This document shows positions 36,048 through 47,970 of a stretch of DNA of 64,000 bases, in pieces. Origin of the DNA: Halorubrum amylolyticum (GTDB lineage: Archaea > Halobacteriota > Halobacteria > Halobacteriales > Haloferacaceae); the NCBI RefSeq assembly GCF_004114995.1, contig NZ_SDJP01000001.1, positions 1 to 64,000 on the forward strand. The letters run 5' to 3'. A model generated the notes under the pieces. The model made no database searches. It was not told the DNA's origin and saw only the letters and a program-made list of their open reading frames with translations. Position 1 is the first letter of the stretch. Every line of letters begins with the position of its first letter. The translations under genes and the position numbers were made by a program.

Positions 36048-37016
36048 TCACGCCCAGTAGGCGTCGCCCGGGCGGGTCTCGAAGACGGCGCGGTCGAGCA
36101 CGTCGACCGCCTTCTCTAACCCCTCCCGCGAGGAGGTGAGCGAGTCCTCGTGTTCGATCGACAGGGCGCCCTCGTAGCCGACCATCCGGAGCGTCGAGAC
36201 CACGTCCTTCCAGTGGCCCTCGTCGTGGCCGTAGCCGATCGAGCGGAACAGCCACGAGCGCTCGGACTCCTCGGTGTAGCCGGTCGTGTCGAGCACGCCT
36301 TTCACGCGAGCGTTCGCGTCGTACACCTTGGTGTCCTTCGCGTGGAAATGGTGAATCGCGTCGTGCTCACCGAGGAAGCGGATCGCTTCGGTCACGTCGA
36401 TCCCCTGCCAGTAGAGGTGCGAGGGGTCGAAGTTGGCGCCGATCCGCTCGTTCGTCGCCTCCCGCAGCGCGAGCATTCCGGTCGGCTCGTACACGAGCAT
36501 GTTCGGGTGCATCTCGATGGCGACATCGACGCCGTGGCCCTCGGCGTGTTCCGCCAGCTCCCGCCAGTACGGGACCGCGACCTCGTCCCACTGGTAGTCG
36601 AGCGCGTCGGCGTGTTCGGTCGGCCACGGGGCCGTGATCCAGTTCGGCGTCGAGTCGCCCGGCGCGCCGCCGGGGAGCCCGGAGAAGCAGGTGACCGTGT
36701 CCACGTCGAGCCGGTCGGCCAGCTCGATCGCCTCCCGGAGCTCCCGGTCGGCCGCCGCGGCGCGCTCCTCGTCGGGGTGGAGGGGGTTGTTGTGCGTCGC
36801 GAGGGCGGAGATTCGGAGCCCGTGGTCGTCGAGCAGGTCCCGGAGCTCCGCCTGCGCCGCGTCGTCGTCGAGGAGCGCCTCGCGGTCGACGTGGTCCTCG
36901 CCGGGCCACCCGCCGACACCCAGTTCGACCGCGTCGACGCCGATTTCGTCGAGGTACGCGACCGCGTCGTCGACCGATTCGCCGCCCAAGGGAACGGTTA
37001 GCACACCAATGTCCAT
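36048..37016 (-). CDS. Sugar phosphate isomerase/epimerase (xylose-isomerase-like TIM barrel)
   Basis: 322 residues. The TIM-barrel metal ligands are visible as EMHPNML, ANFDPSHLYW, HFHAKDTK and the last IEHEDS. The sequence resembles inosose dehydratase/hydroxypyruvate isomerase relatives; product unknown. GATTTATTCGG at about 37041-37051 fits a leaderless promoter for the ATG at 37016. It precedes the oxidoreductase on the same strand, 105 bases apart; this gap contains a seven-T run on the plus strand and no gene. Confidence 0.88.
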   Translation of the reverse strand: MDIGVLTVPLGGESVDDAVAYLDEIGVDAVELGVGGWPGEDHVDREALLDDDAAQAELRDLLDDHGLRISALATHNNPLHPDEERAAAADRELREAIELADRLDVDTVTCFSGLPGGAPGDSTPNWITAPWPTEHADALDYQWDEVAVPYWRELAEHAEGHGVDVAIEMHPNMLVYEPTGMLALREATNERIGANFDPSHLYWQGIDVTEAIRFLGEHDAIHHFHAKDTKVYDANARVKGVLDTTGYTEESERSWLFRSIGYGHDEGHWKDVVSTLRMVGYEGALSIEHEDSLTSSREGLEKAVDVLDRAVFETRPGDAYWA

Positions 37017-37097
37017 GCGAGAGGATAGTACAACACCCCGAATAAATCTTCAGGAAACGTCATCCGCGCCGAGGTGGTCCCGCACCGACGTTGGGAG

Positions 37098-38447
37098 CTA
37101 CCCGCCACGACCGTTCGTCTCGTCGAGGTCGAACAGGCGGCCGGCCGCGGCGATCGTCTCGTCGTCGCCCGCCCGCGCCGCCTCCTTGAGCCGCTCGGTC
37201 GGGGTCGCCAACAGCGAGGCCGTCAGCGACCCCATCGCGTCCTCCAGCACCGTCTCGGCGTCGGCGTCGGACGCGTCGAGCCGGCTCCGGGCGCGTTCGA
37301 GCTCCGCCTCCCGAACGGCCTTCGCCTCGCGGTGGAGCGCCCGGAGCGTGTCCTCCGCGCGGTTCTCCAGTTCGCGGTCGATGAAGCGCTCGACGGCGGC
37401 CGCGACGCGCCGCTCGACCGCGGGCGCGGCCGCCCGCCGGACCGATAGCGCGTCGGCGACCCGGGCGCTGATGGCGTCCAGCCCGACGACGCGCGGGTCG
37501 TTCTCCCGGACCGCGGGGGCCACGTCGGGAGGCGTCGCCAGATCGACCACGGTCGCCGTCCGCGGGAGGGCCGCGGCCGCCTCGGTCCCGAACACCGGGT
37601 CGCTCGCTCCGGTGGCGGTGACGACCGCGTCGGCGTCGGCGACGGCCCGCGGGAGGGCGTCGTGCGACAGCGTCTCGCCGCCGCCGGCGGGCAGGTCGCT
37701 CTCCGCGGACCGGCTCACGGCGTCGACGCGGAGGTCCCAGCGGGCCGTCGCCGCCGCGACGGCCTCGTCGCTCATCTCGCCGGTGCCGACGACCACGAGG
37801 CGGTCGGGCGCCCCCGAGCGGTCGGCGACGACGTCGCAGGCGGCGCTCCCGTAGTCGACGGTCCCCTCGTTGATCCGCGTCTCGTCGCGGACCGACCGCC
37901 CCGCGGCGAGCGCGGCGTCGGCCGCGCGGGTGAGGACGCCGCCGGCGAGGTCCGCATCCCGGGCGGTCTCGAACGCGCGTCGGAGCTGTCCGAGCACGTG
38001 ATCCTCGCCGAGGATCGGGCTCTCCAGCCCGCACGCGACCCGCGTCAGGTGCTCGACGGTGGCCCGGCCGCGCTCCACGCGCGGGTCCGGGACGCCGAGC
38101 GCCTCGCGGGCCGCTCGAATCCCCCTCTCGCGGTCCGCGGCGGTGCGCGTGGCGACGAACACCGCGGCCCGTTCGCACGTCTCGACGGCGACCGCCTCCG
38201 TCACGCGGTCCGCATCGGCGACCCGGCGAGCCGCCGCGACCGGGTCGTCGATCGCCCGGCCGACGGCCGCCGCGGAGCGGTCCGAACCGGTGACCCGACA
38301 GCACGCGAGCCGCCGCACGCTCTCGGGGACCGGTTCGGCGCGGGCGCGTCGCTCGGCGTCCCCGCCGCGTGCGGTTCGATCGGCGGCCCCCTCGCGTCCG
38401 GCCGGCTCCGCGTCCGCCTCGCTCGCGTCGCGTTCGAGTGCGGGCAT
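37098..38447 (-). CDS. hemA: Glutamyl-tRNA reductase
   Basis: 449 residues. First enzyme of C5 tetrapyrrole synthesis: reduces glutamyl-tRNA to glutamate-1-semialdehyde. A 45-residue acidic N-terminal extension precedes the catalytic domain, with the active cysteine in VETCERAAVF, then HLTRVACGLESPILGEDHVLGQLRRAF (the family signature), an NADPH site VVVGTGEMS, and the dimerisation helices RFIDRELENRAEDTLRAL. The start at 38447 is nine bases from the stop of the radical SAM gene, so it is the last gene of the five-gene heme d1-type operon. This links tetrapyrrole supply to that operon. Confidence 0.92.
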   Translation of the reverse strand: MPALERDASEADAEPAGREGAADRTARGGDAERRARAEPVPESVRRLACCRVTGSDRSAAAVGRAIDDPVAAARRVADADRVTEAVAVETCERAAVFVATRTAADRERGIRAAREALGVPDPRVERGRATVEHLTRVACGLESPILGEDHVLGQLRRAFETARDADLAGGVLTRAADAALAAGRSVRDETRINEGTVDYGSAACDVVADRSGAPDRLVVVGTGEMSDEAVAAATARWDLRVDAVSRSAESDLPAGGGETLSHDALPRAVADADAVVTATGASDPVFGTEAAAALPRTATVVDLATPPDVAPAVRENDPRVVGLDAISARVADALSVRRAAAPAVERRVAAAVERFIDRELENRAEDTLRALHREAKAVREAELERARSRLDASDADAETVLEDAMGSLTASLLATPTERLKEAARAGDDETIAAAGRLFDLDETNGRGG

Positions 38448-38455
38448 GGTGGGAG

Positions 38456-39667
38456 TCAGTCGGAGGTGATCGGCGCTTCGACCGGCCCCTCGTCGGGGAG
38501 GTCGGCGCGGCGCTCCGCGTCGGTGAGGTAACAGCGGGGGTCCTCGGCCCACAGGTCGTCGTGGACCGCCGCGGCCCGGGCGCGGGAGTTCCCGCCGCAC
38601 ACCTCCTTCCACGGGCACTCCCCGCACGCCCCCTTCAGGTGTGCGGACGGCTCGGCGAGCCGGTCCCACAGGTCGCTGTCGGCCAGTATCTCGTCGAGCG
38701 ACCGCTCCCGGACGTTCCCGAGCGTGTACTGCGAGAGGAACATGCTCGGGTGGACGTTCCCGAGGTGGTCGACGTTGACCACCTTCGGGCCGGCGTCGCC
38801 GTTCTTCACGACGCGGCCGGGGCCGTCGTCGAACAGCAGCCGGCGCGCCCGCTCGGCGCGCTCCGGCGACTCCTCGCGGATGCGGCGGTAGAGATACACC
38901 GCGTCCGCGTAGTTGCCGGCGGTGAGCACCTGGGTGTCCGGGTGCGTCTCCGCGAACTCCGTCGTCCGCTCGTAGAGGTAGTCGACGGCCTCGCGCGTCC
39001 GGTCGAACGGGAGGTCGGCGTCCGTGATGTCGCCGCCGCGGCCGGAGTAGATGAGGTGGAACACGTTGATCCGGTCGACCCCTTCCTCGACCGCCAGGTC
39101 GATCACGTCCGGCACGTCGTCGACGGTCCCGCGCGTCATCGTCGTGCGGACCCCGACGCTCATCCCGGCGTCGCGGGCGTTACGGAGCCCCTCCAGGGCG
39201 CGGTCGAACGCGCCGTCGACGCCGCGGAACTCGTCGTTCGTCGCCCCGACGCCGTCGAGTGAGACGCCGACGTATCGGAGCCCCGCGTCGGCCAGCTCCG
39301 CGGCCCGATCCGCCGTGAGGAACGTCCCGTTGCTCGACGCGATGGGGCGGATTCCGCGGTCGGTCGCGTGCTCGGTCAACTCCGCCAGATCCTCGCGGAC
39401 GAACGGCTCGCCGCCGCTGAACACCAGCACGGGAACGTCCATCTCCGCCAGCGAGTCGATGAACGCCTTCGCCTCCGCGGTCGACAGCTCTCGCTCGTCG
39501 CGTCCGTCGCACGCGCCGAAGTAGCAGTGGCGACACGCGAGGTTGCACGCCTCGGTGACGTTCCAGACGACGAGCGGCACGACGGCGTCGCTCGACCGCC
39601 GCCGCTCGTACCGGATCTCCTCCGGGCGGTTGTCGAGGCCGCGGATCAGCCGCGTCAGGTCGATCAT
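38456..39667 (-). CDS. Radical SAM/SPASM protein, NirJ-like (heme d1 synthesis)
   Basis: 403 residues. The radical SAM cluster motif is CNLACRHCYF; SGGEPF and SSNGTFL follow. The C-terminal SPASM region has CGECPWKEVCGGNSRARA and a last Cys in EDPRCYLTDAE. The VSLDGVGATNDEFR, HLIYSGRG and NVDHLGNVHPSMF segments resemble NirJ and AhbD; NirJ replaces two propionates of the heme d1 precursor by carbonyl groups, AhbD makes heme from Fe-coproporphyrin. The NirF- and NirS-like neighbours favour NirJ. It overlaps the upstream propeller gene by four bases (ATGA), so translation is coupled. Confidence 0.82.
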   Translation of the reverse strand: MIDLTRLIRGLDNRPEEIRYERRRSSDAVVPLVVWNVTEACNLACRHCYFGACDGRDERELSTAEAKAFIDSLAEMDVPVLVFSGGEPFVREDLAELTEHATDRGIRPIASSNGTFLTADRAAELADAGLRYVGVSLDGVGATNDEFRGVDGAFDRALEGLRNARDAGMSVGVRTTMTRGTVDDVPDVIDLAVEEGVDRINVFHLIYSGRGGDITDADLPFDRTREAVDYLYERTTEFAETHPDTQVLTAGNYADAVYLYRRIREESPERAERARRLLFDDGPGRVVKNGDAGPKVVNVDHLGNVHPSMFLSQYTLGNVRERSLDEILADSDLWDRLAEPSAHLKGACGECPWKEVCGGNSRARAAAVHDDLWAEDPRCYLTDAERRADLPDEGPVEAPITSD

Positions 39668-40848
39668 GCGTCCACCTCCGGGCGGAAGATGCCGCTCGGC
39701 TTCTCGCCGAGTCCCCCGATGCGGTCGACGACGCGAACGTCCTCGGGACGGCCCTCGCGGAGCGGCGCGGCGTCGAGGACGGCCACCTCCCGCCGCTCCA
39801 TGTTGCCGACGTAACAGCGGTCGCCGTCCGGTCCGAAGACGAGGTGGAGCGGTTCGCCGCCGACCGTCACGCGCCCGACGACCTCGCCGGCCGCCGGGTC
39901 GAGGACGGTGACGCGGTCGTCCGCGTAGGCGTCGACGAGCGCGTAGCGCCCGTCCGGGATCGTCGCCGCGAATCCCGTCGGCGTCCCGACGTCGACGAGG
40001 TGCGCCGTCGGGTCGGACCCCGTCGTCGGGTCGGACTCGCCCGCGGCGTCCGCGATGCCGGCGGTTCCCGCGGCGACCGCGTCCAGATCGACGATCGCCA
40101 CCCGGTCGTCGTCGCGCGCGGGAACGACCGCGTAGCGGCCGTTCGGTCCGTCGCCGACGGCGAGCCCGTGCGGGTTCTCCCCGGTCGTCGCGGTCGCGCG
40201 GACGGTCTCGGCGGCGGGGTCGACGAACGACACGCGGGACGCCCCGGCGTTGTTCACCGCGATCAGCGCCTCCTCCGGCAGCGGGTACAGGTCGTGCGGC
40301 TCCGGGCCGACCGGAATCCGGGCGGCCACGTCGAGCGTCGAGTCGACAGTGAGGACCGCGACCTCGCCGGCGGCCTTCAGGCCGACGAAGAGCCGACCGT
40401 CCGGACCGATACCCATGCCGGCACACCGCGACAGCGCCCGGCTCCCGACCGGTTCGAGGCGTCCCTCGCCGTCGACCGCGAACGCGAGCACGCCCGGGTC
40501 GTCGCGGTCGGGGAGGCTCACGCCGGTGCCGACGAAGAACAGCCCCTCGTCGGGCGCGAACGCGCTGCCGACCGGCATCGTCCCGAGGCGGTCGATCCGC
40601 TGGCGGGTCTCCAGCCGGTCGAGGTCGACCACTTCGAGGTGGGCGCTGGCGATGTACAGCAGGTACGCCACGCCGGCGTCGCGGTCGAAGACGGCGGTGT
40701 GCGGGTACCGGCCGTCGCCGACCTCGCCGACCACCTCGCCCCGCGACAGGTCGAGGACGCTGAAGTGGTCGCTCGCGGCGTTTTTCACTATCGTCGGCGT
40801 CGCCGCCGATGCGGTGCCGTCGATCGCTGCGTCGTGTCGTTGTGTCAT
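39664..40848 (-). CDS. NirF-like seven-bladed beta-propeller protein
   Basis: 394 residues, no clear signal peptide. Repeated blades end in VDLDRL, VLDPAAG, VLDAAPL and the like (YVTN-type), and the protein ends with GEKPSGIFRPEV, similar to the PSGIF end I recall in NirF. NirF binds d1-type tetrapyrroles and catalyses the last dehydrogenation step. The mid-protein histidines (PEPHDLYPL, NPHGLAV, PLHLVF) could bind iron or tetrapyrrole. It overlaps both neighbours by four bases. Confidence 0.72.
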   Translation of the reverse strand: MTQRHDAAIDGTASAATPTIVKNAASDHFSVLDLSRGEVVGEVGDGRYPHTAVFDRDAGVAYLLYIASAHLEVVDLDRLETRQRIDRLGTMPVGSAFAPDEGLFFVGTGVSLPDRDDPGVLAFAVDGEGRLEPVGSRALSRCAGMGIGPDGRLFVGLKAAGEVAVLTVDSTLDVAARIPVGPEPHDLYPLPEEALIAVNNAGASRVSFVDPAAETVRATATTGENPHGLAVGDGPNGRYAVVPARDDDRVAIVDLDAVAAGTAGIADAAGESDPTTGSDPTAHLVDVGTPTGFAATIPDGRYALVDAYADDRVTVLDPAAGEVVGRVTVGGEPLHLVFGPDGDRCYVGNMERREVAVLDAAPLREGRPEDVRVVDRIGGLGEKPSGIFRPEVDA

Positions 40849-41981
40849 CGTTGCTCACCTCTGTCCGTTCTGAAACAGCCGGCCGGCGCGACTCCCTCCT
40901 CGAACGGGACCGTCGCGACCACGGGGTCGCCGTCGGTCCCGACCGCGGCCGTCTCGACGACGGTCACGCGGTCGCCGTCGACGCTGGGGACGTAACAGAC
41001 GCGGCCGTCGGCGCCGAACCGCGGGTGGCGCGGCGTCTCCCCGACCGGTACGCGGTCGACGACCGACAGCGCGTCCGGATCGAGGAAGGCGACGCGGTCG
41101 TCCGCGTAGGCGTCGACGGCGACGAGCCGCCCGTCGGGCGTCGCGTCGGTGAACGCGGTCGGGGTCCCGAGCGACACGCGGTCGACCGCCGCCGGACCGG
41201 TCTCGCCGTCGCGAAGCGCGGCCGCGTCGATCGCGGTGACGCCGTCGCCCTCCGTGTCGCCGACGATCCACCGATCGCTCGCCGGCACGACCGTCCCCCC
41301 GCGGGGATTCGGAGCAGGCACGGACCCCAGCACCCGGCCGTCGAGCGCGTCGACGACGGTCACGCGGTCGCCGTCGACGCAGTTCACGCCGACCAGCCCG
41401 TACGCCGGCGAGTACGTCAGGTCCCGCGGCCCGGCGGCGACCGAGAACCGGTCGCGGACCTCGAACGGGGGGCTCCCGTCGATCCGGACCACCTCGTCGG
41501 CGTCGGCGGCGACGACCCAGACGTCGTCGCGCGCGTCCGCGGCGATCCCGGCGGCCTTCCCTACCGGGCGTTCGGCCGCGACCGCGAGTTCCTCGCCGTC
41601 CGTCCGCAGGACGATCACCCCCGGATCGTCCCCGGACGGCAGCGGCCCGTACGTGCTCACGAACAGGTGGCGGCCGCCGCGGGTCGCCGCGGCGCCGACC
41701 GGGGCGGTGCCGACGGTCTCGACGCGGTTCGCGACGGTCAGCCGCCGCAGGTCGACGACTTCGAGCTCGTTCGACCCCATGTAGGGGACGTAGCCGTATC
41801 GGCCGCCGGGCGACCGGACCAGCCCGTGCGGCTGCCGGCCCGAGCCGACTCGGCCGACGGGCTCGTGCGTGGTCGCGTCGACGACCGCGAACCCGGGCGC
41901 GCGGAGCCGCTTGACGAACGCGAGCGGTCCCCGCGGGGCGGCCGACTCGTCCGCCGTCGGGTCGGTGTCGGTCCGGGACAT
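40845..41981 (-). CDS. Second NirF-like beta-propeller protein
   Basis: 378 residues from ATG 41981 (a GTG two codons earlier is also possible). Its blades read SGRQPHGLVRSPGGRYGYV, GPRDLTYSPAYGLVGV and TPRHPRFGADGRVCYV, and it shares overall order and DAYADDRV blade with the downstream propeller, so the two are paralogues from a duplication. The C-terminal FEEGVAPAGCFR corresponds to the PSGIF end of its partner. It may assist d1 assembly, insertion or electron transfer. ATGA overlap with the following gene. Confidence 0.7.
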   Translation of the reverse strand: MSRTDTDPTADESAAPRGPLAFVKRLRAPGFAVVDATTHEPVGRVGSGRQPHGLVRSPGGRYGYVPYMGSNELEVVDLRRLTVANRVETVGTAPVGAAATRGGRHLFVSTYGPLPSGDDPGVIVLRTDGEELAVAAERPVGKAAGIAADARDDVWVVAADADEVVRIDGSPPFEVRDRFSVAAGPRDLTYSPAYGLVGVNCVDGDRVTVVDALDGRVLGSVPAPNPRGGTVVPASDRWIVGDTEGDGVTAIDAAALRDGETGPAAVDRVSLGTPTAFTDATPDGRLVAVDAYADDRVAFLDPDALSVVDRVPVGETPRHPRFGADGRVCYVPSVDGDRVTVVETAAVGTDGDPVVATVPFEEGVAPAGCFRTDRGEQR

Positions 41982-41991
41982 GGTCACGCGA

Positions 41992-43899
41992 TCAGTGGCC
42001 TTCCGCCCGGACGCCGAGGAACTTGCCCGTCGGCGCGAGCAGCCCCTCGATCTGGTCGAGCAGTTCGCCCGTGTTCGGGTCGAACACGAGGATCGACTGG
42101 TTGTCTCCCATCCAGCCGCTGATGTACACCTTCTCGCCGCCGCGGCTGAACTCCGGATGGATGGAGCCGGTGACGCCCCACTGGCTGCAGTCGATCTCCT
42201 GTGTAACCTCCAAGGTCTCCGGGTCGATCTGGTAGACGTACGCGTCGTCCTCGGTGTCGGTGAGGATGACGTCGGCCCACACGTAGTCGCTGTTCTCGTG
42301 TTTGCGGATGAACAGCCCCGGACCGCGGACGTCGATCATCTCCTCGACTTCCCAGGTGGTCGTGTTCCAGACGCCGACGCTCGGCGCCCCGGCGTGGGTC
42401 GTGAACGCGAGGTCCTCGTCGGGGTACAGCGCGCCCGGCCCCGGGTGCGGGACGCCGTCCATCGGGATGGCGGCGACGTGCTCGCGCTCCCGGGTGTCGA
42501 TCACGTCCATCTGGTTGTCCGTCTGGGAGGCGATCATGAAGTAGCGGCCGTCGTCGGTGAAGAAGCCGTCGTGGAGCGTCCGGCCGCAGTCGATGGTCGC
42601 CACCACCGGGAAATCCTCCCGGGTGTAGTCGATGAGCCACACCTCGCCGCCCTCCTTCAGGCCGGCGAGGAACAGCCCCTCCTCGGGCACGTCGTACAGC
42701 GAGCACACCCGGCTCCCGACGCTCTGGCCGTCCGGGTTGACCGTGTGGGTCGGGATGCGCTTGACCGGCTCCATCGTCTCGGCGTCGCAGATGACGAGGT
42801 GGTTCGGGTTGTAGAACCCGCCGATCACCCACTCGCCGTCGCTGGAGACGGCGATGTCGCGCGCGTCCGTCCCCGCGTCCGCGACCGCGACGCGCTCGAA
42901 TCCGAACAGGTCGATCTTGTACATCTCGCCCTGTCGGGACTGGGTGTAAACGTACGCGCCCTCGCGGGTCTGCTCCGGCAGGTCCGGGTGGAAGTCGTGG
43001 ACGTGGATCGCCTTCCCCACGTCCTCGACCCGCTCCAGCAGCTCGTCGTTGACCGTGTCGATCATCGCCACCGAGGCGTTGTTGCGCTCCGTGACGACCA
43101 TGACGTCGCGGAGGTCGAGGTCGTGCTCCGGCTCGGCCGGCAGCTCGCTCTCCTCGGTGATCACCTCGTGACGGTCCGTCAGCGTCTCCATCTCGGTAAA
43201 GTCGACCTGATCGATCGACTCCCCCTCGGGGACGACGTACAGCTGCCCGTTCATCTGGGCGTGGCCGTCGCCGCAGTAGACGTTACACTCGAAGTCGAAG
43301 GTGCCCTCCTCGTCGGCGACGAACGTCACCGAGTCGGTCACGTCGTCGTCGGTGCTCTCGGGGAGCTCGACCGGCCCGATGTCGTACGGCTCCTCCAGGT
43401 AGAACGTGTGGACGGTGAAGTCCTCGTTCTGCTCGAAGGTGGACTGCGTGAACTCGATCGTGAGCTCGGTGTTCGGCGGAACGCGGATCTCCTGCGGCCG
43501 GAACTCGTACTGGTGTGCCTCCAGCTGGACGGTCTCCGACCCCGCGGCGTCGCTCTCGTCGGCCGACGTCGACTCCGACGCCGGCTCCTCGGAGGACTCG
43601 TTCGCCTCCGGCGGCTCCGACTCCCCGCTGCACCCCGCGAACGCCCCCGCCGCCGCGACCGCGCTCGTGGCGAGGAACCGCCGGCGATCCGGCTTCGGAA
43701 GCCCCATCTCGAAGTCGAGCTCGTCGTCGAACTCCAGGTTCGACGCGATCTCGCGCGACGCGCTGAGGTGCCGTTTGATCCGGTCCTCGTGGTCTGCCTT
43801 CCGTTCGCGGTGTTCTTTCTGCTCCCGTTCCGCCTTCTGCTCCCGTTCCGCCTTCTGCCCCCGTTTTTCCGCCTCTGGGGACGTCGTGGGCTGTGACAT
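41992..43899 (-). CDS. CuA-type cupredoxin / heme d1 (NirS-like) fusion reductase
   Basis: 635 residues. A charged 69-residue N-terminal extension with an AEREQK repeat precedes a twin-arginine signal (PDRRRFLATSA, lipobox ending C90). Residues 120-225 form a cupredoxin with all CuA side-chain ligands: H164 (TVHTF), C205, C209, H213, M216; the glutamate of oxidase subunit II is V207. Residues 260-635 match the cytochrome cd1 nitrite reductase propeller: H299 (AIHVH), H443 (TLHDGFF) and H485 (VPHPGPG) align with the proximal and two distal d1 histidines, and the end LAPTGKFLGV is as in NirS. It should reduce nitrite or another small substrate outside the membrane. ATG at 43899 has an AGGAG 12-16 bases upstream. 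Confidence 0.85.
   Translation of the reverse strand: MSQPTTSPEAEKRGQKAEREQKAEREQKEHRERKADHEDRIKRHLSASREIASNLEFDDELDFEMGLPKPDRRRFLATSAVAAAGAFAGCSGESEPPEANESSEEPASESTSADESDAAGSETVQLEAHQYEFRPQEIRVPPNTELTIEFTQSTFEQNEDFTVHTFYLEEPYDIGPVELPESTDDDVTDSVTFVADEEGTFDFECNVYCGDGHAQMNGQLYVVPEGESIDQVDFTEMETLTDRHEVITEESELPAEPEHDLDLRDVMVVTERNNASVAMIDTVNDELLERVEDVGKAIHVHDFHPDLPEQTREGAYVYTQSRQGEMYKIDLFGFERVAVADAGTDARDIAVSSDGEWVIGGFYNPNHLVICDAETMEPVKRIPTHTVNPDGQSVGSRVCSLYDVPEEGLFLAGLKEGGEVWLIDYTREDFPVVATIDCGRTLHDGFFTDDGRYFMIASQTDNQMDVIDTREREHVAAIPMDGVPHPGPGALYPDEDLAFTTHAGAPSVGVWNTTTWEVEEMIDVRGPGLFIRKHENSDYVWADVILTDTEDDAYVYQIDPETLEVTQEIDCSQWGVTGSIHPEFSRGGEKVYISGWMGDNQSILVFDPNTGELLDQIEGLLAPTGKFLGVRAEGH
43817..43873 (-). 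repeat. 18-base tandem repeat coding KAEREQ in the NirS-like protein
   Basis: Two exact 18-base units (43817-43834 and 43835-43852) and a third degenerate one, giving a charged helical N-terminal extension ahead of the Tat signal. Confidence 0.8.
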
Positions 43900-43976
43900 G
43901 GTGGTACTCCTATGGCCAAGTTCGTCCAGTGTTGAGCAAAAGGTCCGGTATGATTCTACACGCGTTGGAAAATCAG

Positions 43977-43988
43977 TGAACATGTTCG
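43977..43988 (-). promoter_or_regulatory. NarO-box-like palindrome upstream of the heme d1 operon
   Basis: TGAACATGTTCG on the plus strand contains the perfect 10-base palindrome GAACATGTTC and matches the reported haloarchaeal CGAA-N4-TTCG box for NarO at seven of eight fixed positions. It is 79 bases before the start codon of the NirS-like gene. A TATA-like stretch (AGAATCATACC) lies between. Anaerobic or nitrate/nitrite control is therefore plausible (inference). Confidence 0.5.
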
Positions 43989-44114
43989 CAGCGATGTACT
44001 TTGATGAACGGTCGCCACCGGTCCGTAAACGGCTCACCTCTCACGTTCGGGGGCGGTTCCCACGCGCTGGGATCGAGCGGTACCGACGTGTACGACCGGG
44101 TCGAACGGTCGGCC

Positions 44115-44564
44115 ATGTCTCGAGAGACCGATACGGGACCCCGAGGGGACCGGATGACGCCCGCCTTCTTCGAGGACGTGCTCGCGGAGTACCTCGACGA
44201 GGACCGCGTCGAAGAGGCGGTGGTCCGGCTGGAGCTCGACGACGGGACGACCAGGCGGGTCGTCGTCGCGGAGGACACCGAGTCGCTCGACCCGGACGAG
44301 TACGCGGCCCGCGAACTCGCGGAGGCCCGACGGCTGATCGAGGGACACGCCGACCGGTTCGAGACCCCCGCCGAACTGACCGTTCCGGTCCGTGACGCCG
44401 ACCGCGTCCGCGAGGAGATCGCGTCGGACGACGCGGTGACGACGTGGGTCAAGCCCGAGGGGATCGCACGGCTGCTCGGCCACTTCGAGGCGCTGACGAG
44501 GGAGGAGTCGACGGCGGACCCGAACGCGCCGGCTGGCCGTTCCGACGCGTCGGACGAGCGCTGA
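44115..44564 (+). CDS. Haloarchaeal hypothetical protein, 149 aa
   Basis: Starts MSRETDTGPRGDRMTPAFFEDVLAE; a later ATG (MTPAFFEDV) is also possible. The core VVRLELDDGTTRRVVVAED is a beta-hairpin, followed by a long helix (EYAARELAEARRLIEGHADRF) and a small domain PAELTVPVRDADRVREEI. It is acidic and soluble with no Cys pairs. Divergent from the heme d1 operon with 215 bases between starts, so it might share that regulatory region. Function unknown. Confidence 0.55.
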   Translation: MSRETDTGPRGDRMTPAFFEDVLAEYLDEDRVEEAVVRLELDDGTTRRVVVAEDTESLDPDEYAARELAEARRLIEGHADRFETPAELTVPVRDADRVREEIASDDAVTTWVKPEGIARLLGHFEALTREESTADPNAPAGRSDASDER

Positions 44565-44737
44565 CGGCCCCACCGAGCCGGCGCCGCCGCGACCGTGAGC
44601 GACGACCGCGTCTCGCCAGAGCACCGACCGCCCGAACGGCTGAGACGAACGCGTTCGGAGCGCGATCCGACCGATAGCGGCGGACGCCCGCCAACGAACC
44701 ACATGAGGTTTTAACGGGTGGAGCGTGTAAGGCGGGT

Positions 44738-45634
44738 ATGGGAATCCTCTCTCGCGCCTCCTACGTCATCCGCTCGAAGGTGAACGCCCTCCTCAACCGG
44801 GCGGAGGACCCGACGGAGTCGCTCGACTACTCGTACGAACAGATGCGCGACGAGCTCCAGGACGTGAAACAGGGGATCGCCGACCTCACGACCCAGAAGA
44901 AGCGCCTGGAGATCCAGAAGCGCAAGCTGGAGGAGAACGTCGAGAAGCACAACCGGCAGGCCCGCGAGGCGGTCCAGCAGGACCGCGACGACCTCGCCCG
45001 GAAGGCCCTCGAAAAGAAGAAATCGAAAATGGCCCAGATCGAAGAGCTAGAGGGTCAGATCGCGGACCTGAACGACACGCAGGAGCAGCTCGTCGAGAAG
45101 AAGAACAAGCTCCAGAACCGCATCGAGGAGTTCCGCACGAAGAAGGAGACGATGAAGGCCCGCTACGAGGCCGCCGAGGCGTCCTCGCGCGTCTCGGAGG
45201 CGATGACGGGCGTCGGCGACGAGATGGAGGACGTGAGCCGGTCCATCGACCGCGCCGAGGAGCGCACCGAGGAGATGGAGGCGCGCGCGGAGGCGATGGA
45301 CGAGCTGGAGGACTCCGGCGCCTTCGAGGACGCGCTCTCGGACAAGGATAACATCGACCGCGAGCTGGAAAGCCTCTCGACGAACAGCGAGGTCGACGCC
45401 GAGCTGGAGACGCTGAAAGGCGATCTCGGGAAGGGCGAGCCCGCGAGCGACGACGGCGGGACGAGCACCGACGCGGAGATCGACGACGAGCTGGCGGACA
45501 TCGAGTCAGAGATCGGCAGCGACGACCTCGAAGCCGACCTCGATGGCGACGCCGACCTCGAAAGCGACGCCACCGAGGAGGTCGACGTGGAACTGGAGGA
45601 GTCCGAGGTCGACGCCGACGAGCAGCGAAACTGA
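44738..45634 (+). CDS. pspA: PspA/IM30 family protein
   Basis: 298 residues. The N-terminus MGILSRASYVIRSKVNALLN is the amphipathic membrane-binding helix, followed by a long coiled coil (residues 30-205, DLTTQKKRLEIQKRKLEENV and KALEKKKSKMAQIEELEGQI). The last 80 residues are a strongly acidic tail, unusual for bacterial PspA. The protein should form membrane-supporting ESCRT-III-like assemblies under envelope or osmotic stress. GGTTTTAACG at 44706-44715 is a leaderless promoter position for ATG 44738. Confidence 0.92.
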   Translation: MGILSRASYVIRSKVNALLNRAEDPTESLDYSYEQMRDELQDVKQGIADLTTQKKRLEIQKRKLEENVEKHNRQAREAVQQDRDDLARKALEKKKSKMAQIEELEGQIADLNDTQEQLVEKKNKLQNRIEEFRTKKETMKARYEAAEASSRVSEAMTGVGDEMEDVSRSIDRAEERTEEMEARAEAMDELEDSGAFEDALSDKDNIDRELESLSTNSEVDAELETLKGDLGKGEPASDDGGTSTDAEIDDELADIESEIGSDDLEADLDGDADLESDATEEVDVELEESEVDADEQRN

Positions 45635-45682: not shown

Positions 45683-46729
45683 TTATTCCGACCGCGGCCG
45701 CGCCCCGGTCCCCGCGCGGTCGCTGTCGCCGAGTCGGATCTCGCCGCCGGAAAGGTCCACGCCGTCGTACGGGTCCTCGGCGAGCAGCAGCGACCCGTCG
45801 AGGTCGGCGTAGTCGAGCAGGGGCGCGAGCTGCGCGGCCGCGGCGATCGACGCGTTCGACTCGATCATGCAGCCGCACATCACTTCCAGGCCGTGAGCGC
45901 GCGCGGCGGCGATCATCCGCCTCGCCTCCAGCAGGCCGCCGGTCTTCATCAGCTTCAGGTTCGCGATGTCGCAGCGATCGGCGATCGCGGGGATATCGGA
46001 GAGCGTCACGCACGACTCGTCGGCGGCGATGGGGAGCGCGGACCGCTCGTAGACGAACCGGAGGCCCTCGGGGTCTTCCGCGGGCACCGGCTGCTCGACG
46101 AACGCCACGTCGCGCTCTGCGAGCCACTCGGTCTTGTCGACCGCCTCGCGGGGCGTCCACGCCTCGTTGGCGTCGACGCGGAGCCGGGCGTCGGGCGCGG
46201 CCTCGCGGACCGCGTCGATCAGCTCGCGGTCCCGGTCGGTGCCGAGCTTGATCTTGAGGACCCGGTAGCCGGCCTCGACCGCTTCCTCGGCCTTCTCGCG
46301 CACGCGCTCCGTCTCGTCCAGTCCGATCGTGTAGGAGGTCGCGGGCGCGGCCGACGGGTCGAGCCCCCAGAGGCGGTGGAGCGGGACGCCGAGGCGTTTC
46401 GCGGCGAGGTCGTGGACCGCGATCGAGACGGCGGCGCGGGCGGCCGGGTTGTCGTTGACGGCGGTCGCCAGCTCGCCTTCGATCTCGTGGAGGGCGTGGG
46501 GGTCGCCGACGCGCTCGACGGCGTCGAGCAGATCCGGAAGCACGGCCTCGACCGTGTCGGCGGTCTCGCCGTAGTGGGCGGAGGGGGCCGCGCCGCCGAC
46601 GCCGGTCATTCCGGCCTCGTCCGCGATCTGAACGATCACGTTCTCGGCGTCCGTCTGGGTGCCCCGGGCGATCGTGAACGGGTTCTCCAAGGGGAGCGAC
46701 GCCCGCTCGAAGGTCGCGTCGAGGCTCAT
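45683..46729 (-). CDS. Enolase-superfamily epimerase/racemase (DgcA- or dipeptide-epimerase-like)
   Basis: 348 residues. Muconate-lactonizing subgroup features: KIKLG (KxK, first general base), DANEAW, FVEQPV and DESC (the three magnesium ligands), and KLMKTGG (second base). These residues fit L-Ala-D/L-Glu epimerases and DgcA, the N-acetyl-D-glutamate racemase. The upstream neighbour is a DgcN-type DUF1611 protein overlapping by four bases, so the pair probably forms the D-glutamate pathway DgcN-DgcA. Start ATG at 46729. Other dipeptide substrates remain possible. Confidence 0.82.
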   Translation of the reverse strand: MSLDATFERASLPLENPFTIARGTQTDAENVIVQIADEAGMTGVGGAAPSAHYGETADTVEAVLPDLLDAVERVGDPHALHEIEGELATAVNDNPAARAAVSIAVHDLAAKRLGVPLHRLWGLDPSAAPATSYTIGLDETERVREKAEEAVEAGYRVLKIKLGTDRDRELIDAVREAAPDARLRVDANEAWTPREAVDKTEWLAERDVAFVEQPVPAEDPEGLRFVYERSALPIAADESCVTLSDIPAIADRCDIANLKLMKTGGLLEARRMIAAARAHGLEVMCGCMIESNASIAAAAQLAPLLDYADLDGSLLLAEDPYDGVDLSGGEIRLGDSDRAGTGARPRSE

Positions 46730-47817
46730 TCGCCGGCGGCCCCTCCCTCGGCGGTCGCAGCACCCTCGCCGAGCCCCGCGTCGACGATCCCGTCCACGAT
46801 TCGGTCAGCGCCGTCGCGGACCGGGTCGGCGGCCGGGACGCCGGCCTCGTCGCCGAACTCGGCGACCGCGTCCGCGGCGGCCGCGTCGTCGTCGACGTCC
46901 TTCGTGTTGAGCGCGCCGGCGACGACGCTCGCCTCGCGGACCGGCGCCGCGAGCCCCTCGTAGAGGTCGACGTAGTCGGACAGCGGCGGGAGCGAGAACG
47001 ACTCGTAGCCGTGGATGACCTCGCGGTCCGCGGCGTGACAGAGGACGAGCCCGTCCGCCATCGAGCCGTGGAGGATGCCGCAGGTGACCGCCGAGTAGGC
47101 GGGGTGGACGATGCTCCCCTGCCCCTCGACGACGAGGAGGTCGTGGTCGTCGCCGACCGCGACGAGCATCTCCTCGACCGCGCCGGCGGCGAAGTCGGCG
47201 ACCACGCGGTCGATCGGGTTCCCCCAGCCGGCGATCATGATCCCGGTCTGGCCGGTCGGGACGAACGCGGCGTCGATCCCGCGCTCGCGGGCGGCCGCGA
47301 CGATCTCCAGCGAGGCGGTCATCTTCCCGACGGAGCAGTCGGTGCCGACCGTGCACACCACGTCGGCGTCCACGTCGCCGGAGGCGCCCGTCGCCACCGT
47401 CAGGTCGTCGTCGGGCTCGCGCACGTCGACGAGGTCGACGCCGTGTTCGGCGGCCAGCGCGGCGAGCTCCTCGTCCTCGTTCAGGAAGTAGTGGAGCCCG
47501 CTCACCACGTCGCAGCCGGCCTCGATCGCGGCCTCCACGTCGGAGCGCCACGACTCGTCGAAGCCGCCGCCGATCGGCGCGATCCCGATGTAGAGGGCGT
47601 CCACGTCGCCGTCGGCGGCAGCGTACGCGTCTTCAAACGACTCGACGATCGGCGCGTCCGGGATGTCCGGGACGTGGTCGCTGACGCGGTCGCCGGCGCG
47701 GTCGCGGTCGAGCACGGCGCGCACGTCCTGGTCGCCGTAGCGCATCACGCCGAGGGCGGTCTTCGCACGGTCGGGGAACTTCTCGTGGGCGAGGATGACG
47801 ATCTGGTCGTCGCTCAT
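46726..47817 (-). CDS. DUF1611 protein, DgcN-like (D-glutamate N-acetyltransferase candidate)
   Basis: 363 residues. An N-terminal Rossmann-like domain (about 1-130, VDALYIGIAPIGGGFDESW) precedes a P-loop-type domain with VGTDCSVGKMTAS, PTGQTGIMIAGWG and VEGQGSIVHPAYSAV. DgcN proteins with this DUF1611 architecture acetylate D-glutamate using acetyl-CoA; DgcA then racemises the product. The gene order and ATGA overlap with the epimerase agree. ATG at 47817 is used; CCTTTTAAGCCC at about 47838-47849 gives a leaderless message. Assignment of substrate is by family and context. Confidence 0.8.
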   Translation of the reverse strand: MSDDQIVILAHEKFPDRAKTALGVMRYGDQDVRAVLDRDRAGDRVSDHVPDIPDAPIVESFEDAYAAADGDVDALYIGIAPIGGGFDESWRSDVEAAIEAGCDVVSGLHYFLNEDEELAALAAEHGVDLVDVREPDDDLTVATGASGDVDADVVCTVGTDCSVGKMTASLEIVAAARERGIDAAFVPTGQTGIMIAGWGNPIDRVVADFAAGAVEEMLVAVGDDHDLLVVEGQGSIVHPAYSAVTCGILHGSMADGLVLCHAADREVIHGYESFSLPPLSDYVDLYEGLAAPVREASVVAGALNTKDVDDDAAAADAVAEFGDEAGVPAADPVRDGADRIVDGIVDAGLGEGAATAEGGAAGE

Positions 47818-47970
47818 GCTGGGTCGCTCGCCCTGAGAGGGCTTAAAAGGGTCGAGGTGCGTCGGTCCGCCCGGCGATGCGGGCGGCCCATCGAACCGGA
47901 CGCGGCGGCCCATTCGATGATCGCGGACGCACTGGTACCCATCGAATCGGATGTGCGCGAGGCCGCCGGC

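What the first reader, a model, noticed from the sequence alone, without database searches (positions are those of the whole stretch)
41992..43899. NirS-like heme d1 protein whose cytochrome c domain is replaced by a CuA-type cupredoxin
Cytochrome cd1 nitrite reductase normally receives electrons through an N-terminal heme c domain. Here the propeller keeps the three heme d1 histidines (H299, H443, H485), but the N-terminal domain is a cupredoxin with all CuA side-chain ligands (H164, C205, C209, H213, M216; the oxidase Glu is Val). Haloarchaea are generally described as NirK users, and their electron carriers are often blue-copper proteins, so a copper-to-d1 reductase would be an elegant and apparently undescribed design. 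The protein is Tat-exported and lipid-anchored.
Basis: partly seen in the sequence, partly recalled or inferred. Interest (0 to 1): 0.93.

Follow-up and report, generated by a model that had tools for sequence, protein, structure and literature searches.

The report
Copper-wired haem d1 nitrite reductase
Some salt-loving archaea carry a protein that joins a domain with the full set of CuA copper-binding residues to the propeller of a haem d1 nitrite reductase, inside a cassette of likely cofactor-making genes, and it is predicted to turn nitrite into nitric oxide with copper rather than haem c as the electron entry point.

Summary
Minus-strand gene 41992-43899 (635 aa) has a Tat-lipoprotein-like signal, a cupredoxin with all five CuA side-chain ligands (31 of 31 homologues) and a cytochrome d1 propeller (E 1.9e-72; nearest NirS by structural Z). 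Its d1-domain signature is that of NirS, not NirN or NirF, in 45 of 45 haloarchaeal proteins. There is no CxxCH, and 13 of 16 carriers lack a cytochrome c assembly protein. The gene heads a block with two propellers and a NirJ/AhbC-superfamily radical SAM enzyme (16 of 16 carriers) and a second HemA (15 of 16), present or absent as a unit in its genus. Best reading: a haem d1 reductase, probably of nitrite, fed by CuA. Limits: NirK is over cut-off in 15 of 16 carriers, often twice; cofactor and activity are untested; the radical SAM enzyme is outside the proteobacterial NirJ clade. PMC10999283 already notes a haloarchaeal clade lacking the cytochrome c domain; I found no report of its CuA domain or cassette in the papers searched.

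The parts
41992..43899 (-). CuA-D1 protein (635 aa): Tat-lipoprotein-like signal + CuA-type cupredoxin + NirS-type haem d1 propeller
43630..43695 (-). Residues 69-90: twin-arginine signal (RR72-73) and lipobox Cys90, preceded by a conserved N-region of about 68 residues
   Evidence: RR...C pattern in 31 of 32 CuA-D1 proteins (not P0013); profile scores below cut-off
43228..43566 (-). Residues 112-224: cupredoxin domain; ligands H164, C205, C209, H213, M216
   Evidence: 31 of 31 invariant; aligned with Thermus CuA; fold
43252..43287 (-). Residues 205-216: CuA loop CNVYCGDGHAQM
42013..43116 (-). Residues 262-629: haem d1 propeller with H299, R347, H443, H485, P486, W596
40845..41987 (-). Propeller protein 1 (380 aa, no signal peptide seen by eye); inferred haem d1 maturation protein
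   Evidence: in 16 of 16 carriers
39664..40848 (-). Propeller protein 2 (394 aa, no signal peptide seen by eye); inferred haem d1 maturation protein
   Evidence: in 16 of 16 carriers (in two pieces in G085)
38456..39667 (-). Radical SAM/SPASM enzyme of the NirJ/AhbC superfamily (403 aa), CxxxCxxC and CX2CX5CX21C present; inferred side-chain cutter for the d1-type cofactor
   Evidence: analysed from 39652
37098..38447 (-). Second, divergent glutamyl-tRNA reductase (HemA, 449 aa)
   Evidence: analysed from 38435
44115..44564 (+). Divergent small gene (149 aa, no Pfam match) beside CuA-D1 in 11 of 16 carriers
37060..44695 (.). Extent of the present/absent cassette (edges about 37054-37073 and 44695-44696)

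Best explanation
The gene encodes a fusion of a cupredoxin that has the complete CuA ligand set with a NirS-type propeller, which is predicted to bind a haem d1-type cofactor and likely reduces nitrite to nitric oxide with electrons that would enter through CuA instead of haem c. Shown by sequence and comparison: the domain architecture, the five CuA ligands, the NirS-type signature, the absence of a haem c motif, the conserved block with a radical SAM enzyme, two propellers and a second HemA, and the presence or absence of that block as a unit. Inferred: the siroheme decarboxylase branch (AhbA/AhbB-type domains, found in every carrier) makes didecarboxysiroheme; the block's radical SAM enzyme cuts side chains from it; the two probably cytosolic propellers finish the cofactor or insert it; HemA2 raises precursor supply; the folded, loaded enzyme leaves by Tat and is lipid-anchored outside, where halocyanin-type or other carriers reduce CuA and CuA reduces d1. 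Most likely setting: denitrification or nitrite/NO handling beside NirK and Nor.
Against: NirK is over cut-off in 15 of 16 carriers, with two or more copies in 10 of 16; the sixteenth, G092, shows NirK pieces, two of them at contig ends. So a d1 nitrite reductase is not needed by these cells for that step. The haloarchaeal D1 clade lies outside the NirS clade (98/96 against 100/99). NirN, not NirS, is the best PDB sequence match (6e-42 against 4.5e-37) and the top Foldseek row. The radical SAM enzyme groups with some Bacillota proteins (96/90), apart from proteobacterial NirJ and from named AhbC, and matches every named NCBIfam below cut-off. The two propellers match NirF only weakly (E 3.6e-4 and 1.3e-5); NirN and NirF orthologues were not searched for elsewhere in the genome beyond the D1 search, which found none. 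Two carriers lack a Nor match (G049, G363) and three have cytochrome c assembly proteins. No activity, cofactor or metal data. Domain orientation and CuA-to-d1 distance were not tested.
Confidence: 0.58

Rival explanations
1. Same architecture, different substrate: a CuA/d1 enzyme whose in vivo job is not dissimilatory nitrite reduction but, for example, oxygen, hydroxylamine or NO chemistry, or nitrite detoxification beside NirK.
For: NirK is over cut-off in 15 of 16 carriers and present twice or more in 10 of 16; sources name some relatives 'hydroxylamine reductase' (names as the sources wrote them); bacterial NirS also reduces oxygen (recalled).
Against: The seven signature positions that separate NirS from NirN or NirF are kept in 45 of 45; Nor is found in 14 of 16 carriers, as expected if NO is a product, though NirK would make NO as well.
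Confidence: 0.25
2. The cofactor is not haem d1 but a related isobacteriochlorin, made by an AhbC-like or new radical SAM activity and the two propellers.
For: The radical SAM enzyme forms its own clade with Bacillota proteins, apart from proteobacterial NirJ and named AhbC; its next-nearest matches in the searched genomes (46-50% identical) are TIGR04347-type proteins (two of two scanned); no NirN or NirF orthologue is evident in the block.
Against: The propeller keeps the NirS signature positions tested, and the NirJ1 profile scores slightly above AhbC for this enzyme (378 against 366 bits, TIGR04347 383).
Confidence: 0.2
3. A biosynthetic or chaperone protein of haem d1 (NirN- or NirF-like) rather than the enzyme itself.
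For: NirN is the top Foldseek row (E 2.3e-34, against 1.5e-33 for NirS) and the top PDB sequence match.
Against: Signature is NirS-type, not NirN or NirF; NirS has the higher structural Z; blastp bits of the D1 domain against rows sorted as NirS, NirN and NirF are 216-271, 131-179 and 87-120.
Confidence: 0.05
4. The cupredoxin binds a single copper or none; the CuA motif is a relic.
Against: All five ligands invariant in 31 of 31 sequences down to 43-44% identity over the domain, with variable neighbours.
Confidence: 0.08

Closest known systems
Cytochrome cd1 nitrite reductase NirS (1nir, 1aof, 6tsi)
   Different: No cytochrome c domain; N-terminal CuA cupredoxin instead; the haloarchaeal proteins form a separate clade
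[quoted passage not shown]
   Same: Very probably the same protein clade (identity not checked, supplement unread); used there as an outgroup and left out of nirS counts
   Different: CuA domain, blue-copper variants and biosynthetic cassette are not mentioned in the passages seen ('cupredoxin' and 'plastocyanin' 0 occurrences in the main text)
Chloroflexi cupredoxin-C1-C2-NirS fusions (PMC8756737)
   Same: A copper domain N-terminal to a NirS domain; P0051 here has cupredoxin, cytochrome c and D1 Pfam domains
   Different: There the haem c domains are kept; here copper stands in place of haem c
Nitrous oxide reductase NosZ
   Different: Order reversed (CuA N-terminal here; in NosZ it matches at the C-terminal end) and a d1-type propeller; NosZ models score 22-24 bits against cut-offs of 625
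eNOR / CuANOR nitric oxide reductases
   Same: Precedent for a cupredoxin instead of haem c in a denitrification enzyme, eNOR also in haloarchaea (PMC8756737)
   Different: Separate cupredoxin subunit (eNOR) of a membrane haem-copper enzyme
NirN and NirF (6rtd, 6tv2)
   Same: Same propeller family
   Different: D/N or Y at the H443 position, L at P486
NirJ / AhbC radical SAM enzymes
   Same: Radical SAM and auxiliary-cluster cysteine motifs (window sequence; C-terminal motif as given in PMC12505453)
   Different: Own clade with some Bacillota proteins; below every NCBIfam cut-off

Membership tests
Cytochrome cd1 nitrite reductase (NirS) | Haem d1 propeller | tested here: met
Cytochrome cd1 nitrite reductase (NirS) | Proximal His and two distal His plus further NirS-type positions | tested here: met
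   Seven positions kept in 45 of 45 haloarchaeal rows and 80 of 80 NirS rows; of all 24 positions looked at, five (346, 445, 453, 502, 534) vary among haloarchaeal rows
Cytochrome cd1 nitrite reductase (NirS) | N-terminal cytochrome c domain with CxxCH | tested here: not met
   No CxxCH in the first 300 residues of any of the 50 haloarchaeal D1 proteins scanned; no cytochrome c Pfam
Cytochrome cd1 nitrite reductase (NirS) | Nested in the NirS clade | tested here: not met
   Haloarchaeal clade 98/96, NirS clade 100/99, separate (long-branch warning for the NirS+NirN join; only 14 NirS rows, from the loci)
Cytochrome cd1 nitrite reductase (NirS) | Bound haem d1; nitrite to NO activity | not testable with these tools
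   Needs protein
CuA domain | Two Cys, two His, one Met ligands in Cx3Cx3Hx2M plus an upstream His | tested here: met
   31 of 31; aligned with Thermus CuA
CuA domain | Glu between the cysteines | tested here: not met
   V207, otherwise I, A, L or T. Its main-chain oxygen is the ligand (recalled), and Thermus CuA has Gln there, so this does not exclude CuA
CuA domain | Mixed-valence two-copper centre | not testable with these tools
   EPR needed
Nitrous oxide reductase (NosZ; clade III L-NosZ) | Full-length NosZ or L-NosZ model match | tested here: not met
   23.6 and 22.3 bits against 625; L-NosZ 52.6 against 700
NirN dihydro-haem d1 dehydrogenase | NirN-type positions (D/N at H443, L at P486) and cytochrome c domain | tested here: not met
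NirF | Y at H443, I at R347, R at W596 | tested here: not met
   42 of 42 NirF rows against 0 of 45 haloarchaeal rows
NirJ (proteobacterial haem d1 radical SAM enzyme) | NCBIfam TIGR04051 cut-off and clade | tested here: not met
   343.5 against 515.45 bits; separate clade
NirJ/AhbC superfamily | CxxxCxxC and C-terminal CX2CX5CX20-21C | tested here: met
   CNLACRHC and CGECPWKEVC-X21-C in the window sequence; C-terminal motif as given in PMC12505453
Glutamyl-tRNA reductase (HemA) | Pfam GlutR_N and GlutR_dimer over cut-off | tested here: met
   NCBIfam TIGR01035 at 185.6 bits is below its cut-off of 209.55

The most novel reading that the evidence does not exclude
Haloarchaea hold an independent, copper-wired branch of haem d1 enzymes with its own cytoplasmic way of making the cofactor: HemA2, a separate radical SAM lineage and two signal-less propellers build and insert a d1-type cofactor before Tat export of the finished enzyme, and one of the propellers does the still unidentified step that puts the keto groups on the ring. 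CuA is the ancestral electron entry of this branch and was later lost or exchanged for blue copper, so the electron-entry domain is a swappable module in lineages that mostly cannot make cytochrome c.
Probability: 0.28. Interest if true: 0.92.

Novelty: new variant of a known kind. Interest (0 to 1): 0.82.

Why it matters
Denitrification is described with two NO-forming nitrite reductases: copper NirK, and haem c/haem d1 NirS. A survey states that the haloarchaeal nitrite reductases it retrieved are all NirK and none NirS (PMC8400030), and a global nir survey left the halophilic NirS-like clade out of nirS counts (PMC10999283). A CuA-d1 reductase would be a third wiring plan and a case of an organism group using copper in place of haem c where cytochrome c assembly is mostly missing. 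The cassette also puts the unsolved late steps of haem d1 synthesis (the keto-installing enzyme is unknown, PMC12505453) beside two testable candidate genes.

Tried and rejected
A NirK replacement role: rejected, since NirK is over cut-off in 15 of 16 carriers. A NirN- or NirF-type biosynthetic role: rejected by the signature, although NirN is the top Foldseek row and top PDB sequence match. A NosZ-type enzyme: rejected by scores and domain order. Calling the radical SAM enzyme an orthologue of proteobacterial NirJ: rejected after the second tree; the first tree was rooted only at its midpoint. In those trees I labelled two haloarchaeal groups AhbC-like and AhbD-like by guess; a later scan of three of their members showed them to be TIGR04347 (2 of 2) and TIGR04053 (1 of 1) over cut-off, so the AhbC/AhbD labels are not shown. 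The fold of the cupredoxin alone does not decide CuA against other cupredoxins (ties). Neighbours of the D1-only paralogue (5 of 8 such loci fetched) include none of the other five cassette genes used as queries; of five neighbour genes of one locus scanned with Pfam, an epimerase, a PEP carboxylase and a regulator-like protein matched and two matched nothing, so they gave no functional lead. The small divergent gene has no Pfam match.

Row selection: the D1 tree used 69 of the 193 rows (19 of 31 CuA-D1, 14 of 80 NirS, 12 of 26 NirN, 10 of 42 NirF; all 14 other haloarchaeal rows); P0044-P0048, found later, are in neither. In one search, six of the 154 bacterial ORFs with a D1 match were dropped as short or unclassed. 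The NirS, NirN and NirF rows were sorted by bit score, length and CxxCH, not by annotation. The structure alignments used 36 and 31 sequences. The 80 bacterial loci are the best 80 of 504, ranked by likeness to an Amphritea protein. The Fisher tests ignore kinship; 8 of the 16 carriers belong to one genus.

Full report
OBSERVATION. The finding lies on the minus strand, 41992-43899, 635 aa. Domains: a twin-arginine signal with lipobox Cys90 behind an N-region of about 68 residues (pattern in 31 of 32 CuA-D1 proteins); a cupredoxin (residues about 112-224; Cupredoxin_1 E 8e-6, 26.3 bits against a cut-off of 27); a cytochrome d1 propeller (262-629, E 1.9e-72).

EVOLUTION. In a 69-row tree the haloarchaeal D1 proteins form one clade (98/96) outside NirS (100/99), NirN and NirF. 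CuA-D1 proteins are paraphyletic at its base; D1-only proteins and blue-copper fusions (P0033, P0034, P0038; P0044 found later) nest inside, so on this tree CuA is the older state and was lost or replaced (support inside this part is uneven). The tree program warned of long branches where NirS and NirN meet.

HAEM C IS ABSENT AND MOSTLY UNAVAILABLE. No CxxCH occurs in the first 300 residues of any of the 50 haloarchaeal D1 proteins scanned. The cytochrome c assembly family PF01578 has no match in 13 of 16 carriers, including this genome, and is present in three that share one genus. A survey of archaeal cytochromes c says that some Halobacteriales species, but not the majority, encode cytochromes c and ccm genes (PMC4429474, passages and section 17).

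THE CASSETTE. A protein search over 391 Halobacteria genomes found CuA-D1 in 16 (14 of 376 good-quality genomes; 6 of 86 genera); eight of these also have a shorter D1-only paralogue. In 16 of 16 the order CuA-D1, propeller 1, propeller 2, radical SAM enzyme is kept on one strand (in G085 propeller 2 appears in two pieces). A HemA gene follows in 15 of 16 and the small divergent gene lies upstream in 11 of 16. The radical SAM orthologue (69-100% identical) is in 16 of 16 carriers and in none of 20 same-genus non-carriers, whose best match is 48-50%. The block's HemA is a second copy: two HemA in 15 of 16 carriers, one in 10 of 10 same-genus non-carriers searched. AhbA/AhbB-type siroheme decarboxylase domains (PF17805; that reading is recalled) are in 16 of 16. 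In the window's genus the two flanking genes (36048-37016 and 44738-45634) sit 116-209 bp apart in 16 of 16 non-carriers searched (two of them, G249 and G364, with an incomplete copy of the first gene) and 7.6-7.7 kb apart in both carriers, with sharp edges near 37060 and 44695 (five empty sites). So the genes come and go as one unit.

MECHANISM (inferred). AhbA/B make didecarboxysiroheme, shared with haem b synthesis. The radical SAM enzyme removes side chains. The propellers show no signal peptide by eye in the first 60 residues of 16 propeller-1 and 15 propeller-2 sequences (no predictor was run, and one propeller-2 piece lacks its start), so they probably act in the cytosol on the cofactor, in place of the exported NirF and NirN of bacteria (export of those is recalled). 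Tat would then carry out the folded, loaded enzyme. Outside, a copper carrier would reduce CuA and CuA would reduce d1, where nitrite becomes NO.

WHAT SPEAKS AGAINST. NirK is over cut-off in 15 of 16 carriers (193 of 375 other genomes), with two or more copies in 10 of 16, and Nor is found in 14 of 16 (193 of 375): carriers look like denitrifiers, but ones that already have a nitrite reductase. The radical SAM enzyme forms a clade with Microaerobacter, Bacillus and two unnamed proteins (96/90), apart from named AhbC and from NirJ of the nirS loci, so which side chains it cuts is open. The propellers match NirF only weakly. Nothing here shows copper, haem d1 or activity.

LITERATURE. [quoted passage not shown] 'cupredoxin' does not occur in its main text. 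PMC8400030 (passages) states that all haloarchaeal nitrite reductases it retrieved are NirK. PMC8756737 (abstract and passages) describes Chloroflexi fusions with a cupredoxin in front of haem c domains and NirS, and cites cupredoxin subunits in eNOR. PMC12505453 (passages) says the enzyme that adds the keto groups of haem d1 is unknown. PMC3403918 (one passage) and PMC8305020 (passages) describe AhbA-D in haloarchaea. Eight searches of the held library for a CuA, cupredoxin or d1 protein of this kind listed no paper whose title or shown abstract describes a CuA or cupredoxin domain on a haloarchaeal d1 protein; five of them showed only part of their hits (20 of 43, 20 of 78, 20 of 27, 15 of 36, 10 of 12), and most subscription papers, preprints and all supplements were out of reach.

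VERDICT. It works like a cytochrome cd1 nitrite reductase but fails that family's defining haem c domain and clade tests, so it is filed as a new variant: a CuA-d1 reductase with its own cofactor cassette.

Noticed in passing
P0033, P0034, P0038, P0044: Relatives in which a blue-copper (type 1) domain stands in front of the same d1 propeller, with motifs CIPHEQLGM, CQVHPTTM or CEVHPSTM.
   Followed up: partly
L019-L026 (8 genomes); five fetched wider as L042-L046: A second, D1-only paralogue of about 430-455 aa lies elsewhere in 8 of the 16 carrier genomes, without cassette genes beside it in the five loci read; those five keep H299, H443 and H485.
   Followed up: partly
window residues 1-68 of the CuA-D1 protein (43696-43899, minus strand): Unusually long conserved N-region before the twin-arginine motif (RIKRxLSASR...FDDELDF); possible docking segment for cofactor loading before export.
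   Followed up: no
G000:C26:11386 and G000:C15:42542; nine other carriers: Ten of the 16 carriers have two or more NirK over cut-off; why they keep several copper enzymes plus a d1 enzyme is unexplained.
   Followed up: no
TIGR04347 proteins P0183, P0218, P0223; L127, L131: The radical SAM proteins closest to the cassette's enzyme in the same genomes look like TIGR04347 'pseudo-SAM' proteins; whether they are the AhbC of haloarchaea was not tested.
   Followed up: partly
P0162 (Microaerobacter geothermalis), P0163, P0164: Radical SAM proteins of 54-58% identity, two of them named Bacillota, form the sister group of the cassette's enzyme together with P0160; whether a d1 protein lies beside them was not seen.
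   Followed up: no
P0159 with P0140; P0161 with P0146 (same longest-contig lengths): Some haloarchaea seem to hold two radical SAM genes of this clade, recalling the NirJ1/NirJ2 pairs of other organisms (recalled).
   Followed up: no
L040:12142-13199 (G085): Propeller 2 is read in two pieces in different frames; a frameshift or an assembly error.
   Followed up: no
P0051: A 614-aa protein with cupredoxin, cytochrome c and D1 Pfam domains together, like the published Chloroflexi fusions.
   Followed up: no
window 45683-46729 and 46726-47913, minus strand: An ORF that looks like an enolase-superfamily epimerase (by eye) overlaps by 4 bp with a DUF1611 protein.
   Followed up: no
window, whole: Genus probably Halorubrum: the radical SAM protein is 94% identical to one named Halorubrum sp. 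LN27 (P0127).
   Followed up: partly
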